This document shows, piece by piece, positions 1 to 52,504 of a DNA stretch of 52,504 bases. The stretch is taken from NCBI GenBank assembly GCA_903835255.1, contig CAILMI010000040.1, positions 1 through 52,504 on the forward strand, given 5' to 3'. The notes beneath the pieces are model-generated. The model was not told the origin of the DNA, searched no databases, and was given only the letters and a program-made list of their open reading frames with translations. The position numbers and the translations under genes were made by a program. The number at the start of each line of letters is the position of its first letter. The stretch's first letter is position 1. The DNA is from an uncultured Verrucomicrobia subdivision 3 bacterium (GTDB taxonomy: Bacteria; Verrucomicrobiota; Verrucomicrobiia; Limisphaerales; UBA11358).

Positions 1-87
1 CCAGTCCAAGCTTGATCGCTTCATGCTTTTTATTCGCGGCTTGCTCCGCGCGAACTTCAGAGTTATTTAGTTTTTGTGAGTTCATAC

Positions 88-124
88 GTTGGCAGGTGTA
101 GCGCTTCGACGCTCACCTGCCAAC
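88..124. repeat. Long imperfect hairpin
   Basis: GTTGGCAGGTG (88-98) pairs with CACCTGCCAAC (114-124), and inside it AGCG (100-103) pairs with CGCT (110-113), giving a 15-bp stem with one bulged base and a 6-base loop. No T-run follows on either strand, so it does not look like a standard intrinsic terminator. It may end an upstream transcript or belong to the repeat clutter before pilT. Confidence 0.6.
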
Positions 125-207
125 AACTCATGTCATCTACCGGTCAAAAACCGGCGCGGAAGGGACGTGTGCGGGCGTCCGTTCTGGCTGCCTTCCTGGC
201 GCCTGCT

Positions 208-281
208 GAACGCGGGCGCGGACAGTGCAGTGCTGACCCTACCCTATGGGGGCGAACTTCTTTTTCGGAGTTCGGGTTCAA
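208..281. repeat. Partial copy of dispersed TIR repeat (copy A)
   Basis: The sequence from the GCGGGCGCGGACAGTGCAG block to the terminal TTCGGAGTTCGGGTTCAA aligns with the right part of the copies at 3087-3431 and 28309-28508. Only this end is recognisable; no matching left end is seen. Confidence 0.45.
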
Positions 282-360
282 GATGCGACTGGCACTCGGG
301 GATGGGGGGCCGGGCGCGTTCTCGGCTGGCGTTTGGCGGCCGCTGGATTATTCTGCGCGG

Positions 361-1449
361 ATGGAACTGTTCAACAAAATCCTAAAAATCGCCATCGATG
401 GGGGCGCCTCGGACGTCCACCTAAAAATCGGCACGCCAGTCATCTTCCGCATCAACCGGGAACTCATCGCGGTCGAGTGTCCGTTTCCGACCCCGGAATG
501 GATGGCCAAAATCGTCGCCGCCGTCACGCCGGACCATTTGAAACAACGTCTGGAGGAGGAGCGTGAGGTGGATTTCTCCTATTATGTGCCGGGGCTGGGC
601 CGGTTTCGAACCAACCTGTTTCAGCAGCGCGGGCAGTGGTGTTTTGCCATGCGCCACGTCAGGACCAACGTGCCCAGTTTCGAGCAGCTCGGCCTGCTGG
701 AGCAGATCAAGCAGGTCGCGGAATCCCCGCGCGGCATCGTGCTGGTGGCGGGTTCCACCGGTTCCGGAAAATCCACCACGCTGGCGGCGATGCTGGAACA
801 CGTCAACGCCAACTTCAAGAAACACATCATCACGCTGGAGGATCCGATCGAGTTTATTTTCGAGGACAACCAGTCCGTGATTGAGCAGCGGGAGGTCGGC
901 CTCGACACCCGATCCTTTCATCACGCGCTTAAAAATGTCCTGCGCCAGGATCCGGACATCATCATGCTGGGGGAGATGCGCGATGCGGAGAGCTTTGCGG
1001 CGGCCATGAGCGCGGCGGATACCGGGCATCTGGTCTTTTCCACGCTGCACACCACCACGGCATCCCAGTCTGTCAACCGCATCCTCGACTTCTTCAAGGC
1101 GGAGGAACGCGAACAGGTCCGCCGCCAGCTCGCCGCCACCTTGCGCGGGGTGATTTGCCAGCGCATGGTCGCCACCGTGGACGGACGGATGACCCCGGCC
1201 TTGGAAATCCTCATCAATTCGCCGCTCGTCAAAAAAATGATCGAGGACAACCGGCTCGACAAATTGGCCGCCGCTATTGAAACCAGCACGGACGATGGCA
1301 TGATCACCTTCAATCAGTGCCTGTTCAATCTCGTCAAGGCCGGGCGCGTCTCGGAAAAAGAGGCCCTGGCCAAGGCCACCAATCCGCAGGCCTTGGAAAT
1401 GAATTTCAAAGGCATCTTCCTCAACGAAGGCGGACGCATCGTGGGCTAA
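361..1449 (+). CDS. pilT: PilT-like type IV pilus retraction ATPase
   Basis: 362 aa, a normal PilT length. PilT is the cytoplasmic hexameric ATPase that retracts type IV pili for twitching and DNA uptake. The N-terminus MELFNKILKIAIDGGASDVH is the typical family start, which is why 361 was chosen over in-frame ATGs at 76 and 283. A Walker A motif GSTGSGKST lies near residues 131-139 and a Walker B-like IIMLGEMRD near 200-208, with family features such as TLEDPIEF and STLHTTTASQSVNRI between and after them. No other pilus gene is adjacent. The truncated comEC at the other end of the window is a possible partner in DNA uptake. PilT versus PilU cannot be settled from this alone. Confidence 0.9.
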   Translation: MELFNKILKIAIDGGASDVHLKIGTPVIFRINRELIAVECPFPTPEWMAKIVAAVTPDHLKQRLEEEREVDFSYYVPGLGRFRTNLFQQRGQWCFAMRHVRTNVPSFEQLGLLEQIKQVAESPRGIVLVAGSTGSGKSTTLAAMLEHVNANFKKHIITLEDPIEFIFEDNQSVIEQREVGLDTRSFHHALKNVLRQDPDIIMLGEMRDAESFAAAMSAADTGHLVFSTLHTTTASQSVNRILDFFKAEEREQVRRQLAATLRGVICQRMVATVDGRMTPALEILINSPLVKKMIEDNRLDKLAAAIETSTDDGMITFNQCLFNLVKAGRVSEKEALAKATNPQALEMNFKGIFLNEGGRIVG

Positions 1450-3817: not shown

Positions 3818-4419
3818 CAGAAAATGCGGCGGGCCACCACGATCTGGTCCCCGGGATAAACATGCGGATCCTTGGAGGAGTCCTGCTGCGCCTCCTCGGA
3901 GTCCACCCGGATCCGCTGACCATTGGAGCGGATGAGCAGAATGTTGCCGTGGTTGGCAAAGTCGGTGAAGTCTCCGGCAGAGGCGATGGCCTTGGTGACG
4001 GTGATTTCGCCGACATAGAGCTGGCGTCCGGGCCCTTTAACCTCGCCGCGGACATAATAGACGAGGTCGCCTGGCTTCACGGTCACCGTGAGGCGGACAA
4101 AATATTTTGGGACGTAACGGTCGTGGATTTCGTTCTGCAACTCGCCTGCGGTTTTGCCGACGGCATAGACCGATCCAATCAGGGAGAGGGTAAGGCTGCC
4201 GTCTTCCTTGATGATTTCCTCATGCGGCGCGATGATCTCAGGGGTGCCGGTCAAGAGGATGCTGACCGTTTCGCCCACATGGAAGCGGGCGACTTCGGCA
4301 CGGTTTTCCTTACTGATGGCTCTTGGGGCGTCTGCCGGCGGGGCCGTGGAGCAACCGCTCCCCATCCAGCCCGCCAACAGCAAGCCGAAAAGCAATGATC
4401 GGGCGATAGAAAATTTCAT
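3817..4419 (-). CDS. Short Wza-like polysaccharide export lipoprotein
   Basis: 200 aa from ATG 4419 (4428 is an in-frame alternative). A signal peptide ends in a lipobox with GSGC, so it should be a lipoprotein. The mature part has a Poly_export domain (VGETVSILLTGTPE, KEDGSLTLSLIGSV, GKTAGELQNEI) followed by one SLBB-type domain (VRGEVKGPGRQLYVGEITVTKAIASAGDF). It is about half the length of E. coli Wza and lacks the C-terminal helix that forms Wza's outer-membrane pore. It starts 31 bp after the kinase gene and overlaps the FHA gene by one base. Longer in-frame starts would lie inside the kinase gene and do not encode a signal peptide. Confidence 0.88.
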   Translation of the reverse strand: MKFSIARSLLFGLLLAGWMGSGCSTAPPADAPRAISKENRAEVARFHVGETVSILLTGTPEIIAPHEEIIKEDGSLTLSLIGSVYAVGKTAGELQNEIHDRYVPKYFVRLTVTVKPGDLVYYVRGEVKGPGRQLYVGEITVTKAIASAGDFTDFANHGNILLIRSNGQRIRVDSEEAQQDSSKDPHVYPGDQIVVARRIF

Positions 4420-4450
4420 AGGGCGCATTGTTTTTAAATCCCGGGCGGAA

Positions 4451-6649
4451 TCAATATTTCGGCTGGATTCCCGGGGAGCCGGGGTCGCCGCCCTCCTGAG
4501 GAACCGGGGCCGCCGGATTCTTGGCAGTGGTGAGATTGCCGGAATAGTAGCTATCGTGGTAATAGCCGCTGTAGTAGTAATAGCTTTCGTCCTGCGACAT
4601 ATTGATGTTATTGAGCACAATGCCGAGGTAGGTGCCACCGACTTTTTCAATCACCTGTTTGGCGCGGAGGTTCATCGGCTGGGGATAACGGCGGTATTGG
4701 ATCACCTGGACGACCAAGTCCACTTCACTGGCCAAGACCGAGGCGTCGCTCACGCCCAAAACCGGCGGGGAATCGAAAAAGACAAAGTCATAACGGTGTT
4801 TCAACTCCCCAATCATCTGCTTCATCGCATCTGAATTCAGAATGCTCATGGAACTGCTGGGCAATTTGCCGCTGGGCATGAAATTGAGGGTGGCAACGCC
4901 GGTGGTCTGAATGACCTCCGTGAGCGGGTTCTGCTTGAGCAGGTAGTTCGTCAGACCGATATCATTGGTGACATGCAGCAGCTTGTGCAGAGTGGGCCGG
5001 CGCAAGTCCGAATCCACCACCAGCACGCGATTGCCGGCTTGGGCGAAAACGGTGGCGAGGTTCAGGGTGGTGGTGGACTTGCCCTCGCCCGCCCCGGCGC
5101 TGACCATCACGATGGAGGTCATTCCTTGATCTTTCCGCGCAAACAGAATGTTGGTGCGCAAGACGCGGTAGGCCTCGGCATAGCGGCTGTCAGGGCCTTC
5201 ATCGATCAGGTAGCCCACATTTTGAGGGATAACCCCCAGCACGGCCGACTGGAAGACCCGCTCCACATCGTCAATGGTCTTGACGCTGGTATCCAAGTAC
5301 TCGATGAAGAAGGCCAGGCCGACCCCGACGATAAGGCCGAAGATGAGGCCCAAGGCGATGTTGAGCGGCTTGTTTGGGCGGACGGGATCTTTGCCGGGTT
5401 CAGCCATCTGGGTGGTTTCCACCACGGAAGATTTCGGGATGGCCAGATCGATTTTTTCGGTTTCAATGCGGGCGGCCAGGAGCTTGTGGAACTCCACGGT
5501 GTTTGCCAGCTTGCGCTTTTCTTCCCAGTACGGCTGACCGCGGACAGCTTCCTCCTGATCTTTCTGAGTGGCCAACTCCACCTCCTTGGTCAGGGTGTCG
5601 AGCGCCGCCTTCTCCGTGTTGAGCTTGTTCTCCATCCCGATCATGATGCCGATAATCCGGTCATCAATCTGCCGATCCACCAGGGTGATCATGGATTGGA
5701 TGCGGATGACATCCGGGTTCTCAAGCGACAGGTCGTTGGTCTTGGTGACAAATTCCTGCTGGGAGACGTGCAGTTTATCTAACAGCCCGGACAGCACGCT
5801 GTCGGGATTCAGGGTGGGGAGAACATCCCTCAGTTGACCGTGCGGCAGGGCCCGGAGCTGGACCAGTTCCTCCTTGAGCCGGTTGTAACGGGTCTGCCCC
5901 TCCATCATCATGTCGTGGTACTGACGCAATTGCTCCTGGTTCAGGGTGGGGGTCGGAATAAAGGACTGCGGGTCCGTGTCCACGATGCCCAGCTCCTTGC
6001 GCATCCGATCCACATTGCCCCGGATGCTCTGGATCCGCAGATCCTCTGACTTATACTGGTCTTCCAAAACCTGGATCGCGCCCGAGGTCCGCTGCATGCG
6101 CCGATCCACCCGGTAATCGTGATAGGCTTTGGCGATGGCATTGGCCAGATTGGCCGCCTCCTGACTATCTGCGCTGTAGACAGTGATGCTGACCAGCGTG
6201 GTATTGCGGACGGGAGACAGGGAAATCTGGTTTTTCAAAAACTCCAGTGTTTCCGCGGTTTTAAACGTGTCCACACCGTATTTTTTACCCCAGACGGTGT
6301 TCAGATTCAGGGCCGCCACCACCTTGCCTAATACTGTCGGACCCTGAAGGATTTCAAGCTGGGTCTGAAGGAAATAAGGGTCGTAGACGGTAGCGGATCC
6401 GCCCCCGCCGCTCATGTTAGGAATGTCCGATGTGACGTCCGGCTCGATGTTGATTTGGGCGGTGCTGGAATAGGAAACCGGCAGGATGAAAGTCACCGCC
6501 GTCGCAATGATGGCGGTGATGAGAAACACCGTGATGATGATCGCCTTGCGGATCCGGATGATCCGCCAATAATCCAGAAAATGCAATCCTTCCTGGGGCG
6601 AGGACGCCTTCTGCGGCGGCAGGGGGGGCTGATTTTGATCAGAATCCAT
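4451..6649 (-). CDS. Wzc-like polysaccharide co-polymerase and BY-kinase
   Basis: 732 aa. An N-terminal Wzz chain-length domain is bounded by membrane segments near residues 37-57 and 426-444, with a long periplasmic coiled-coil-rich region between. The cytoplasmic half is a bacterial tyrosine kinase with Walker A SAGAGEGKST (~516-525), Walker A' VLVVDSDLRRP (~540-550), Walker B FVFFDSPP (~620) and a C-terminal tyrosine cluster (ESYYYYSGYYHDSYYSG, ~680-700) that is the usual autophosphorylation tail. Such proteins control polymerisation and export of capsule or exopolysaccharide. No glycosyltransferase, flippase or polymerase is in the window, so the polymer genes lie elsewhere. Confidence 0.93.
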   Translation of the reverse strand: MDSDQNQPPLPPQKASSPQEGLHFLDYWRIIRIRKAIIITVFLITAIIATAVTFILPVSYSSTAQINIEPDVTSDIPNMSGGGGSATVYDPYFLQTQLEILQGPTVLGKVVAALNLNTVWGKKYGVDTFKTAETLEFLKNQISLSPVRNTTLVSITVYSADSQEAANLANAIAKAYHDYRVDRRMQRTSGAIQVLEDQYKSEDLRIQSIRGNVDRMRKELGIVDTDPQSFIPTPTLNQEQLRQYHDMMMEGQTRYNRLKEELVQLRALPHGQLRDVLPTLNPDSVLSGLLDKLHVSQQEFVTKTNDLSLENPDVIRIQSMITLVDRQIDDRIIGIMIGMENKLNTEKAALDTLTKEVELATQKDQEEAVRGQPYWEEKRKLANTVEFHKLLAARIETEKIDLAIPKSSVVETTQMAEPGKDPVRPNKPLNIALGLIFGLIVGVGLAFFIEYLDTSVKTIDDVERVFQSAVLGVIPQNVGYLIDEGPDSRYAEAYRVLRTNILFARKDQGMTSIVMVSAGAGEGKSTTTLNLATVFAQAGNRVLVVDSDLRRPTLHKLLHVTNDIGLTNYLLKQNPLTEVIQTTGVATLNFMPSGKLPSSSMSILNSDAMKQMIGELKHRYDFVFFDSPPVLGVSDASVLASEVDLVVQVIQYRRYPQPMNLRAKQVIEKVGGTYLGIVLNNINMSQDESYYYYSGYYHDSYYSGNLTTAKNPAAPVPQEGGDPGSPGIQPKY

Positions 6650-49004: not shown

Positions 49005-49475
49005 GTGTCACAAGGACGCGTATTCTTCAAATACTGGCTGCCCGCGCTGGTGTGGATGGCCGTGATTTTCACCGCCTCTGGCGATACCGAGTCGGCGCAC
49101 CGTTCCTCCACCCTGTTTGAGCCGCTGCTGCGCTGGCTGTTTCCGCACCTCCCCCTGCCACACATCGAGACGCTGCACTATATCTTTCGGAAAATTTGTC
49201 ACCTCACGGAATACGCCCTGCTCGCGCTGCTGCTCTGGCGGGCATTGCATCATTCCCGCGACGGTCTGTCCTCCTGGTCCTGGCCGAAAGTCGGCGGCAC
49301 ACTGCTCCTTGTTTTTCTTTATTCCGCAACCGACGAGGTCCATCAGGGGTTCGTGCCGGGGCGGACGGCGCAGTTTTCAGATGTGCTGATCGACACCCTG
49401 GGGGGAGCCATCGGCCTGCTGACCTTTTGGCTTTACCGTCATTTTCGGAGGCGCTTCCGCTCGCCGCCGCCATGA
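49005..49475 (+). CDS. VanZ-like membrane protein
   Basis: 156 aa from GTG 49005 (TTG 48954 would add 17 residues with no support). About four membrane segments. The VanZ signature is present: ICHLTEYALLALLLWRAL and YSATDEVHQGFVPGRTAQFSDVLIDTLGG. VanZ itself gives low-level teicoplanin resistance, but most members have unknown roles at the cell envelope. Its stop overlaps the comEC ATG (ATGA). Confidence 0.85.
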   Translation: MSQGRVFFKYWLPALVWMAVIFTASGDTESAHRSSTLFEPLLRWLFPHLPLPHIETLHYIFRKICHLTEYALLALLLWRALHHSRDGLSSWSWPKVGGTLLLVFLYSATDEVHQGFVPGRTAQFSDVLIDTLGGAIGLLTFWLYRHFRRRFRSPPP

Positions 49476-50299
49476 AGCATCCGCTCGCCGCTTCGGTGAT
49501 CTGGTACGCCGCCGGATTGATTCTGGCCGAAACGTTTTACCTGCCGCCCGTGGCGCTGTTTGCCGCCGCCTTCCTAATCCTCCTCCCCGCCCTCCTCCTC
49601 AAAAAACTCCGACCGCTGCTGATCGGGCCGCTGCTCGCCCTCGCAGGCTGGACCCATCTGACGGTTCAAAGCGGCGCCCTCTCGCCGCATGATTTGCGCG
49701 CGCGGGCCGGCGACTCCCCCGCCCTCGTGACCATTCGCGGGACGCTGGGAGACACCCCAGGCCTGAGAATTCTCGAACGCGACGGTCGGCAAACCGAACA
49801 CACGCTGGCCGAGGTGCGCCTCAGCGAACTTCAAGGCACCAACGGCTGGCAACCCGCCCTCGGCAGCGTCTTGGTGACAACTCCCGGCACGCTCCCCCCA
49901 CATTTTTTTGCCGGCCAGACGGTGGAGATTTCCGGCGTCCTCAGCCCTCCGCCGCGACCGCCGGCCCCGGGGCTTTTTGATTACCGCGCGTACCTGCAAC
50001 GGCAGGGGATTTATTTCCAGCTCAAGACCGGTTCCGCCGCCGACTGGCAACTGCGTTCCACCCGCTCCTTGGCGCCGCCTTGGAGCGACCGTTTCCTGGC
50101 GTGGTCGCAGAAAACGCTTGCCTATGGATTGCCGGAGGAGGACGAACCGCTGCGCCTGCTCTGGGCCATGACGCTCGGCTGGAAAACGGCGCTCACCAGC
50201 GCCGTCACTGAACCCTTCATGCAGTCCGGGACGATAAACGACTACCTTTTTAGAAGAATGGATGAAATCCACTGTTTACAGCGGAATTTTGAAGTTTAG
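49472..50299 (+). pseudogene. comEC: Truncated comEC (DNA-uptake channel), N-terminal part only
   Basis: The frame starts at ATG 49472, overlapping vanZ, and recognisable ComEC sequence runs to about 50233 (~254 aa). It has two or three N-terminal hydrophobic segments and the DUF4131 soluble domain (FFAGQTVEISGVLSPPPRPP, GLFDYRAYLQRQGIYFQLKTG), then LLWAMTLGWKTALTSAVTEPFMQSGT. Intact proteins continue here with the competence domain (GT.H.LAISGLH), normally several hundred residues more. Instead the frame runs into unrelated AT-richer sequence and stops at 50299. ComEC moves single-stranded DNA across the inner membrane, so this copy cannot work unless the rest is rejoined. Confidence 0.85.
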
Positions 50300-50439
50300 C
50301 CCTGCCGCTATGCGCTGCAATCTGCCACCCTCTGCCCGTTCGGTCAAGTTGGCAATCAAAACGCATCCTGCGCCGTCTGGCGAGCTTATGCGGCGGGAAT
50401 TAAATTGACCACGGCAACTACATTTAGTCTGCTTACCGC

Positions 50440-50610
50440 ATGAAAAATAAACGCATCGCAAAATTGAACCCCAAGGAAAATCACGCTTGGGAGTTTGCTT
50501 TTTGCTTTCACTTGGAAGACGGCAATTCCGATGCTAAAGCCGATAGGCTCGCATGGAAAGATTTGCAGGCAGACTTTCCTAGACTCAAAAAGTATCAGGG
50601 TTGCCGTTAA
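50440..50610 (+). CDS. Small protein (56 aa) at the head of the R-M operon
   Basis: ATG 50440 to TAA 50608-50610. The translation begins MKNKRIAKLNPKENHAWEF, continues through HLEDGNSDAKADRLAWKDLQ and ends DFPRLKKYQGCR. The DG.SD..ADR.AW.D.Q..FPRL pattern resembles short conserved proteins often seen on mobile elements and in environmental bacteria; I know no function for them. It is 27 bp upstream of the methyltransferase on the same strand, so it could be a controller or simply cargo, although no helix-turn-helix is evident. Confidence 0.65.
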   Translation: MKNKRIAKLNPKENHAWEFAFCFHLEDGNSDAKADRLAWKDLQADFPRLKKYQGCR

Positions 50611-50637
50611 ACTACCCGCTGGCATCCATATTGACCG

Positions 50638-51576
50638 ATGAAAAAAGCCGCCAAGGTGGAAAATGCACCTGCCCCCAAGCTAATTAACCGCGTAGAAGTC
50701 TTGGACGATTGGCAACTAAAGCCAAAAGACACAGCAGAAGCTAACGCCAACATTCCATTGCCTGAGCTTTACCTTTCAAACGCCCAAAAAGGCGTCTGGC
50801 TTTACAAAGGCAACTGCTTAGAAGTAATGGATTCAATAATTGAGAAGCACAAAGACGGTTGCTTTGATGCTATTTTTGCAGACCCGCCTTACTTTCTATC
50901 TAATGGCGGCATTACTTGCCACGCGGGAAAAATGGTTAAAGTTCACAAGGGAGATTGGGACAAGTCACAAGGCTATGAATACAACCACGAATTTAACATG
51001 GAATGGTTACGGCGATGCCAGAGCTTGCTAAAGCCAAACGGGACTATCTGGGTAAGCGGAACGCATCATGTAATTTTCAGCATTGGCTATGCGATGCAGC
51101 AGCTTGGTTTCAAGATTCTAAATGATATAGCTTGGGAAAAGCCAAACCCCCCGCCAAACCTTTCTTGCCGCTACTTTACCCATTCAACCGAGACAGTGCT
51201 TTGGGCAGCTAAGAATGAGAAAAGCAAGCATCTGTTTAACTATGCAGATATGCGGAAAGCTAACGGCGGAAAGCAAATGAAGACAGTCTGGCGATTTACT
51301 GCGCCTTCAAAGTCTGAAAAAGCATCTGGCAAGCATCCAACGCAAAAGCCGATAGCTTTAATTGAGCGTTGCTTGCTCGCATCCACAAAACCAAACGATT
51401 TAGTGCTAGACCCATTTGCAGGGAGCGCGACAACTGCCATATCAGCAATGCGGATAGGCAGGCGTTGCGTAGTGGTTGAAGAAGACCCTAGCCATGTCAA
51501 TCTAGCATCAAAGCGGATAGAGGCTGAGTCTAACAGCGCAAAAGATTTATTCGGAACAAAACTTGAAGGGAAATAA
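50638..51576 (+). CDS. Site-specific DNA-methyltransferase, beta class (N6-adenine/N4-cytosine)
   Basis: 312 aa. The catalytic motif IV is DPPY (AIFADPPYFLSNGG, ~83), and the SAM-binding motif I comes near the C-terminus (LDPFAGSATTAISAMRIG, ~258). This order, with a target-recognition region between, is the beta class. KHPTQKPIALIERCL is the typical motif X. It resembles DpnA-like companions of DpnII-family enzymes. It would protect DNA from the endonuclease encoded 2 bp downstream. An additional Dam-like alpha-class methylase, present in the classical DpnII system, is not seen here. Confidence 0.92.
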   Translation: MKKAAKVENAPAPKLINRVEVLDDWQLKPKDTAEANANIPLPELYLSNAQKGVWLYKGNCLEVMDSIIEKHKDGCFDAIFADPPYFLSNGGITCHAGKMVKVHKGDWDKSQGYEYNHEFNMEWLRRCQSLLKPNGTIWVSGTHHVIFSIGYAMQQLGFKILNDIAWEKPNPPPNLSCRYFTHSTETVLWAAKNEKSKHLFNYADMRKANGGKQMKTVWRFTAPSKSEKASGKHPTQKPIALIERCLLASTKPNDLVLDPFAGSATTAISAMRIGRRCVVVEEDPSHVNLASKRIEAESNSAKDLFGTKLEGK

Positions 51577-51578
51577 TT

Positions 51579-52472
51579 ATGCAAAGCCGTCTTCAATACA
51601 TCACCAAGCCGCAAGAATTTGTCACCAAATTTTTGGAAACTATCATGCCAGGTGTAATCCCCCGCGCAAACTTCATTGATTGGGCAAGTATTGACAGCAA
51701 GACGGAAGGCTTAAAAGAATCACTGGAGTTTTACACAGTGATTGCAGCGAAGAAACTAAGCGAAGAATGTTTTTTGGTTGAACTAAGGGACGCAATTTTA
51801 GCCCATGATAACCCAACGCCATTAGTTAAATGCGCGTTTGAACTTCTTGGACATACCAATAATGATTTTGTCTCGCGCCAAGATGATTTGAATGTCGAAA
51901 TCTTGGGGCTAGAGATTCAAAAAGGCTCACAGGAACAAGCGGCCTATCTTGCCAGCCTGCTAAATGACTTGGGATTTAGAAAGCTACTCGACAGGGAAGA
52001 TTTACAAGACTTGCTCTTAGGTGTTCAAGTTGGACTCGAAACCAATCGGCGCAAGAACATCGGCGGCGAACAATTTCGGCTTGTGGTTGCTCCTATACTC
52101 AAACGGATAGCAACGCCGCTAGGTTTGACTGTCCTAGAAGAACAAGTCATGTATTACGGCGACGGCCTGAGCAAGAAAGTTGATTTTACATTAACCCGCG
52201 ATGGCAAGCATATCATCGGCATTGAAATAAACTTCTACACTGTCAGCGGTTCAAAGCCAACGGAAATTAAACGGAGTTACGGCGGGATTCTGCATGGTAT
52301 GCAGGAACATAAAACGGAGCTAGTTTGGATTACAGACGGCAAGGGTTATCGGTCTATGCTGCGCTCATTGCGCGATGCCGTCGTTATCTTCCCAAACATT
52401 TACAACATCAAAATGCTTGAAGAACATTTCGCGCAAGACGTGGCGGCGAAGTTGAAAGAGCTAGACAAATAA
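51579..52472 (+). CDS. DpnII-family type II restriction endonuclease
   Basis: 297 aa. It resembles DpnII/MboI-type enzymes: GLETNRRKNIGGEQF (~148) and a nuclease core with VDFTLTRDGKHIIGIEINFYTVSGSKPTEIKRSY (about residues 206-239, given here in full as one family signature shortened to VDFTL...GIEINFY and SGSKPTEIKRSY), providing the Asp and Glu expected for metal-dependent cleavage. Prototype members cut at GATC. The ATG is two bases after the methyltransferase stop. Zero GATC sites in the island agree with that specificity, but related enzymes with other targets exist. Confidence 0.85.
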   Translation: MQSRLQYITKPQEFVTKFLETIMPGVIPRANFIDWASIDSKTEGLKESLEFYTVIAAKKLSEECFLVELRDAILAHDNPTPLVKCAFELLGHTNNDFVSRQDDLNVEILGLEIQKGSQEQAAYLASLLNDLGFRKLLDREDLQDLLLGVQVGLETNRRKNIGGEQFRLVVAPILKRIATPLGLTVLEEQVMYYGDGLSKKVDFTLTRDGKHIIGIEINFYTVSGSKPTEIKRSYGGILHGMQEHKTELVWITDGKGYRSMLRSLRDAVVIFPNIYNIKMLEEHFAQDVAAKLKELDK

Positions 52473-52504
52473 AAAACCCGCCACCATATCGGCGACGGGC
52501 TAGG

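What the first reader, a model, noticed from the sequence alone, without database searches (positions are those of the whole stretch)
50200..50300. comEC broken at its conserved 'SGT' motif by a foreign R-M block
ComEC homology is good up to AVTEPFMQSGT (about 50233), then stops abruptly at the start of low-GC DNA. The break lies just before the highly conserved HLLAISGLH segment of the competence domain. An R-M system inserting into the DNA-uptake channel would both close natural transformation and add a second barrier to foreign DNA. pilT at the other end of the window shows the lineage has pilus machinery.
Basis: partly seen in the sequence, partly recalled or inferred. Interest (0 to 1): 0.75.

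Follow-up and report, generated by a model that had tools for sequence, protein, structure and literature searches.

The report
Serine-recombinase element splits competence gene comEC
A mobile DNA element carrying a restriction-modification system has inserted cleanly into comEC, the gene for the channel that lets this uncultivated Verrucomicrobiota bacterium take up DNA, and relatives of its recombinase have broken comEC or a second DNA-uptake gene, dprA, in sister species.

Summary
The break is real. The window is one whole contig (G000:C40). comEC ends at codon 254 (...MQSGT, 50233). The rest of comEC, from codon 255 (MHIFAISGLH...), lies on contig C26 of the same genome, with no codon lost; in 78 of 80 named relatives the two parts are contiguous. 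No other comEC exists in the assembly. Both contigs enter 46% GC DNA at the break. The left part carries an N6/N4 methyltransferase and a DpnII-family endonuclease. The right part carries a large serine recombinase (LSR) and a cut-off resolvase. The ends share a 2-bp AT core inside an imperfect dyad, as expected for LSR integration. So the agent is an LSR integrative element with R-M cargo; the R-M block is not itself the inserter. A decayed relative (50% identity) sits at the same codon, reversed, in sister genome G004. The other members of that LSR clade (G007, G018) sit inside dprA, another transformation gene; other LSR lineages hit dprA in three more genomes and comM in one. Streptococcal Phi1207.3/Tn1207.1 is the precedent for comEC. 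What looks new is one recombinase clade split between comEC and dprA. Loss of transformation, excision and R-M activity are untested.

The parts
49472..50233 (+). comEC 5' part, 254 codons, ends ...AVTEPFMQSGT
   Evidence: DUF4131 E 5e-24; contiguous with the C part in relatives
50234..50235 (.). AT core: left junction of host and element (GGGACG-AT-AAACGACT); the right junction on C26 at 2368-2369 is AGTCAACT-AT-GCATATC
   Evidence: same core at the G004 junction
50236..52504 (.). left part of the integrated element (45.7% GC against 60.5% for the host), running to the contig end
50440..50610 (+). small ORF, 56 aa, function unknown (not searched against families)
   Evidence: read directly from the sequence
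50638..51576 (+). N6/N4 DNA methyltransferase, beta class, close to CcrM and DpnA
   Evidence: PF01555 E 2e-57; CcrM and DpnA structures; PADLOC MTase_II
51579..52472 (+). DpnII-family type II restriction endonuclease
   Evidence: PF04556 E 1e-36; PADLOC REase_II
76..1449 (+). pilT, context only, not part of the element
   Evidence: TIGR01420 E 6e-127

Best explanation
A site-specific integrative element, moved by its own 596-aa large serine recombinase, recombined its attP with an attB inside comEC at the codon pair T254|M255, through an AT crossover. This split comEC into a 254-codon N part and a 557-codon C part without loss of sequence. The element carries a two-gene DpnII-type R-M system and a second serine recombinase or resolvase. 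The likely effect is loss of the DNA-uptake channel, hence of natural transformation, for as long as the element stays. That would protect the element from removal by homologous transformation, while the R-M genes guard against other incoming DNA or make loss of the element costly. Precise excision should restore comEC. Shown: the split, the clean site, the domains, the recurrence in sister genomes. Inferred: loss of transformation, excision, R-M activity, and the benefit to the element.
For: Both parts of comEC are found in the genome, complementary to the codon. Low GC on both sides of the break only inside the element. LSR domain set Resolvase + Recombinase + Zn ribbon, next to the right junction and reading away from it. 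Shared AT core, and end arms forming an imperfect dyad with 12 of 20 bases matching, p about 0.002. G004 has a 50%-identical but deleted LSR at the same comEC base in reverse, with a similar end (AT-AGTTGAC..), as a palindromic AT core allows. The nearest LSRs in the genus lie in dprA (G007, G018), in one clade with the comEC recombinases (100/99 support). Complete methyltransferase and endonuclease genes with family matches. The insert has no GATC, CCGG or GTAC sites (0 seen against 15, 14 and 7 expected), a mark of DNA that has passed through restricting hosts.
Against: The two contigs are not joined, so that the R-M half and the recombinase half are one element is inferred from matching junctions. 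The assembly is a draft and intact-comEC cells in the population cannot be excluded. No RDF, phage structural or transfer genes are visible, so how the element moves between cells is unknown. Competence has not been tested in this genus. GATC specificity of the R-M pair is not shown, since other palindromes are missing too.
Confidence: 0.88

Rival explanations
1. Chance disruption: LSR elements enter many conserved genes because their attB lies in conserved sequence, and comEC is simply one such target without selection for blocking transformation.
For: Other LSRs in the genus lie next to or inside dinB, thiG, gatB, mutS, ftsK and NUDIX genes (read by eye from flanks).
Against: All four members of the LSR clade that holds this one lie in comEC or dprA, two unrelated genes of one pathway, at three different sites. 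Other LSR lineages hit dprA in G002, G016 and G429 and comM in G013.
Confidence: 0.35
2. Reversible switch: the element excises under certain conditions and restores comEC, as phages do in Listeria comK and as the XisF-excised fdxN element does, so competence is regulated rather than lost.
For: Clean site, no codon lost, intact LSR frame, distant XisF-like match.
Against: No RDF identified. In G004 the element is decayed and comEC lost 17 codons, and in G429 a 330-bp low-GC stretch replaces part of comEC, so insertions there ended in permanent loss.
Confidence: 0.25
3. Assembly or binning error: two unrelated contig ends put together.
For: Both contigs end inside the foreign DNA; draft assembly.
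Against: Exact complementarity of the comEC parts, equal GC of both foreign pieces, shared AT core, the same site used in G004.
Confidence: 0.04
4. The R-M block moved by itself and the LSR is a separate older insertion.
For: A 66%/52% identical methyltransferase-endonuclease pair exists in G505, in another family of the order, with no match to this LSR in the 9 kb read.
Against: The pair lies inside the same low-GC insert bounded by one pair of junctions; no separate junction is seen.
Confidence: 0.2

Closest known systems
Phi1207.3 / Tn1207.1 / Phi10394.4 in streptococcal comEC (celB)
   Same: Integrate at a specific dinucleotide inside comEC; Phi1207.3 carries three serine recombinases and SpyI R-M genes (PMC4260502). 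Tn1207.1 in comEC stopped transformation-driven exchange in pneumococcus (PMC8321556).
   Different: GA core rather than AT; macrolide-resistance and phage genes; different R-M type; Firmicutes rather than Verrucomicrobiota. Whether the codon is the same was not tested.
Mobile elements that disrupt competence genes (comYC, comK, comFA, comM, comEC), Croucher et al. 2016
   Same: Integrative disruption of transformation genes at conserved sites by related integrases in many species (PMC4774983).
   Different: dprA was not found among the targets in the passages read; here one recombinase clade is split between comEC and dprA; new phylum.
Piscirickettsia salmonis comEC
   Same: comEC interrupted by mobile DNA with other transformation genes kept (PMC12955456).
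   Different: There by various transposable elements at non-identical positions; here by LSR integration at a fixed base.
DpnII-type R-M system
   Same: DpnII-family endonuclease beside a beta-class methyltransferase like DpnA.
   Different: One methyltransferase only; specificity untested.

Membership tests
Large serine recombinase integrative element | Recombinase with Resolvase N-terminal, Recombinase and Zn-ribbon domains | tested here: met
   PF00239, PF07508 and PF13408 all above cut-off
Large serine recombinase integrative element | Same short core at both ends, target not lost | tested here: met
   AT at both junctions, codons 254 and 255 intact
Large serine recombinase integrative element | Recombinase gene next to an att site | tested here: met
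   Start codon about 40 bp from the right junction
Large serine recombinase integrative element | Excision and integration activity | not testable with these tools
   Needs reads or bench work
Type II R-M system, DpnII family | DpnII-family endonuclease beside a cognate methyltransferase | tested here: met
   PF04556 1e-36 and PF01555 2e-57, adjacent genes; the pair is conserved in G505
Type II R-M system, DpnII family | GATC specificity | tested here: inconclusive
   GATC missing from the insert, but so are CCGG and GTAC
Phi1207.3/Tn1207.1 elements | Serine-recombinase insertion in comEC | tested here: met
   This locus; PMC4260502
Phi1207.3/Tn1207.1 elements | GA core dinucleotide | tested here: not met
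   Core is AT
Phi1207.3/Tn1207.1 elements | Phage structural genes, mef/msr cargo | tested here: inconclusive
   None in the 4.6 kb seen; the middle is missing
Competence-gene-disrupting mobile element | Insertion splits a gene of the transformation pathway and no intact copy remains | tested here: met
Competence-gene-disrupting mobile element | Transformation is lost | not testable with these tools
   Uncultivated species

The most novel reading that the evidence does not exclude
One clade of large serine recombinases is specialised at the level of a pathway: its elements have moved between unrelated genes (comEC and dprA) but stayed within natural transformation, because only insertions that block chromosomal curing by transformation persist. 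Verrucomicrobiota would then show the same conflict known from streptococci, with R-M cargo as a second layer.
Probability: 0.45. Interest if true: 0.7.

Novelty: new variant of a known kind. Interest (0 to 1): 0.52.

Why it matters
Mobile elements that silence DNA uptake are key evidence for the idea that transformation serves to cure chromosomes of parasites. So far the cases come mostly from well-studied, often pathogenic genera. Here, in an uncultivated soil and freshwater lineage, one recombinase clade is found in two different genes of the same pathway, and several other recombinase lineages hit that pathway too. It turns 'do elements choose transformation genes?' into a question that can be counted across metagenome-assembled genomes.

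Tried and rejected
Scan of 85,000 genomes with the LSR found no relatives; an alignment of LSR fragments was not conserved enough to scan with. IMG/VR gave one weak LSR match and none for the endonuclease. Phage records hold only LSRs at 31% identity or less among those listed, and no endonuclease relative; four plasmid records hold weak ones. No solved structure matches the endonuclease or the LSR by sequence. A missing contig with the resolvase start was sought and not found. I first took the absence of GATC as a sign of the R-M specificity, but CCGG and GTAC are absent as well, so I do not claim it.

Full report
What is there. The window is the whole of contig C40 of a 70-contig draft genome, 97.5% complete. 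comEC begins at 49472 and runs for 254 codons to ...AVTEPFMQSGT at 50233. The frame then enters DNA of 45.7% GC (host 60.5%) and stops after 21 further codons. The remaining 557 codons of comEC start at base 2368 of contig C26 with MHIFAISGLHIALIAG. Aligned to relatives in the order, the N part ends at residue 254 and the C part starts at 255, contiguous, in every relative that holds both parts apart from broken copies. Among 80 named contigs, nearly all titled Verrucomicrobia or Limisphaerales (subdivision 3), 78 are contiguous; the two exceptions are themselves broken comEC genes. The genome has no other Competence-domain gene. dprA is intact in this genome and pilT is present at 76-1449.

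The element. Left part (window 50236-52504): a 56-aa ORF; a beta-class N6/N4 methyltransferase at 50638-51576, nearest in solved structures to CcrM and DpnA; and a DpnII-family endonuclease at 51579-52472 (PF04556 E 1e-36; PADLOC REase_II). Right part (C26 1-2367): a resolvase lacking about its first 36 residues at the contig edge, and a 596-aa large serine recombinase (LSR) on the minus strand whose start lies about 40 bp from the junction with comEC. The missing start of the resolvase is not elsewhere in the assembly, so a piece of unknown size lies between the contigs.

Junctions. Left: GGGACG-AT-AAACGACT. Right: AGTCAACT-AT-GCATATC. Joining the host flanks gives ACG-ATG, the Thr-Met pair of intact comEC. 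The two element arms form an imperfect dyad around AT: 12 of the first 20 bases match, reached in 0.2% of random pairs from the insert. This is the pattern of large serine integrases, which cross over at a 2-bp core (general knowledge of the family).

Recurrence in the genus (49 genomes). Searching with the LSR, the nearest matches by identity are G004, G007 and G018, at 47-59% over fragments. G004: a deleted LSR copy in comEC at the same base, but in reverse orientation, with an element end similar to ours (AT-AGTTGAC-AT-TATTT); the far side lost 17 codons of comEC. A palindromic AT core allows both orientations. G007 and G018: LSR fragments inside dprA, the gene for the protein that loads RecA on incoming single strands, at two different sites (VLGTGIN and FAVPGRI). 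A tree places our LSR with G018, then G004, then G007 (clade 100/99; our LSR + G018 97/81; the fragments are short). Thus one clade is split between comEC and dprA. A fifth LSR fragment (G429, 37-41% to ours, 50% to the G007 copy) is in dprA at the same site as G007, though the tree puts it just outside the clade. Other LSRs, 85% alike with each other, sit in dprA of G002 and G016, and a quite different one truncates comM in G013. comEC is also broken in G007 about five codons further on by other DNA, in G429 with a 330-bp low-GC scar just before the site, and in G016 at another site. Not all LSRs in the genus do this: flanks read by eye show dinB, thiG, gatB, mutS, ftsK and NUDIX neighbours. 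These are draft genomes, so some breaks may be assembly effects; the LSR-bounded ones are the safest.

How it most likely works. The LSR integrates the element at a conserved base of comEC. The truncated 5' part cannot make the membrane channel; the 3' part has no evident ribosome-binding site and lacks the N-terminal domain. DNA uptake should stop. Mobile elements gain from this because transformation with homologous DNA lacking the element can delete it (PMC4774983); in pneumococcus, insertion of Tn1207.1 in comEC did stop exchange (PMC8321556). The R-M pair would act on DNA that enters by other routes, or keep the element in place. [quoted passage not shown] The insert lacks GATC, CCGG and GTAC, which suggests a past in restricting hosts but does not identify the specificity of the carried endonuclease.

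What is known. Phi1207.3, Tn1207.1 and Phi10394.4 integrate at a GA dinucleotide in streptococcal comEC; Phi1207.3 carries three serine recombinases and R-M genes (PMC4260502). Integrative disruption of comYC, comFA, comM and comK is described in many species (PMC4774983), and comEC is broken by transposable elements in Piscirickettsia (PMC12955456). So the kind of event is known. I found no report of dprA as an integration target, of a recombinase clade split between two transformation genes, or of such elements in Verrucomicrobiota, within an open-access library only and from titles, abstracts and passages rather than full reading.

Verdict. Observation confirmed; interpretation partly right. 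New variant of a known kind, of moderate interest on its own and more if pathway-level targeting holds in a full count.

Noticed in passing
G018 locus L140:5149-5523 (dprA parts 5527-6414 and 4368-4730); G007 locus L139:38-1205; G429 locus L178:2001-3995: LSR fragments related to the comEC recombinase interrupt dprA at two sites (VLGTGIN in G007 and G429, FAVPGRI in G018).
   Followed up: yes
G002 loci L115, L273, L274; G016 loci L122, L275: LSRs 85% alike interrupt dprA at its PPLVLYV motif in two genomes.
   Followed up: partly
G013 locus L272:2347-4906: A different LSR truncates comM (YifB Mg-chelatase family) inside its AAA+ domain.
   Followed up: partly
G007 loci L137 and L037; G429 locus L142:6010-6348: comEC is also broken in G007 about five codons downstream of the site, next to MazG-like and TPR genes, and in G429 by a 330-bp low-GC scar.
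   Followed up: partly
Loci L276-L279 (PV036435, PV036436, PV036434, PV036424): Ca. Heliusvirales phage records from gut Lachnospiraceae end in a comEC 3' fragment that begins at the SG-LH motif, so these prophages seem to integrate in comEC about 8 codons from the site seen here.
   Followed up: partly
window 50236-52504 and L003:1-2365: GATC, CCGG and GTAC are wholly absent from 4.6 kb of insert (15, 14 and 7 expected).
   Followed up: partly
G505 locus L271:2388-4132: The same methyltransferase-endonuclease pair (66% and 52% identity) in another family of the order, with no match to this LSR in the 9 kb read.
   Followed up: partly
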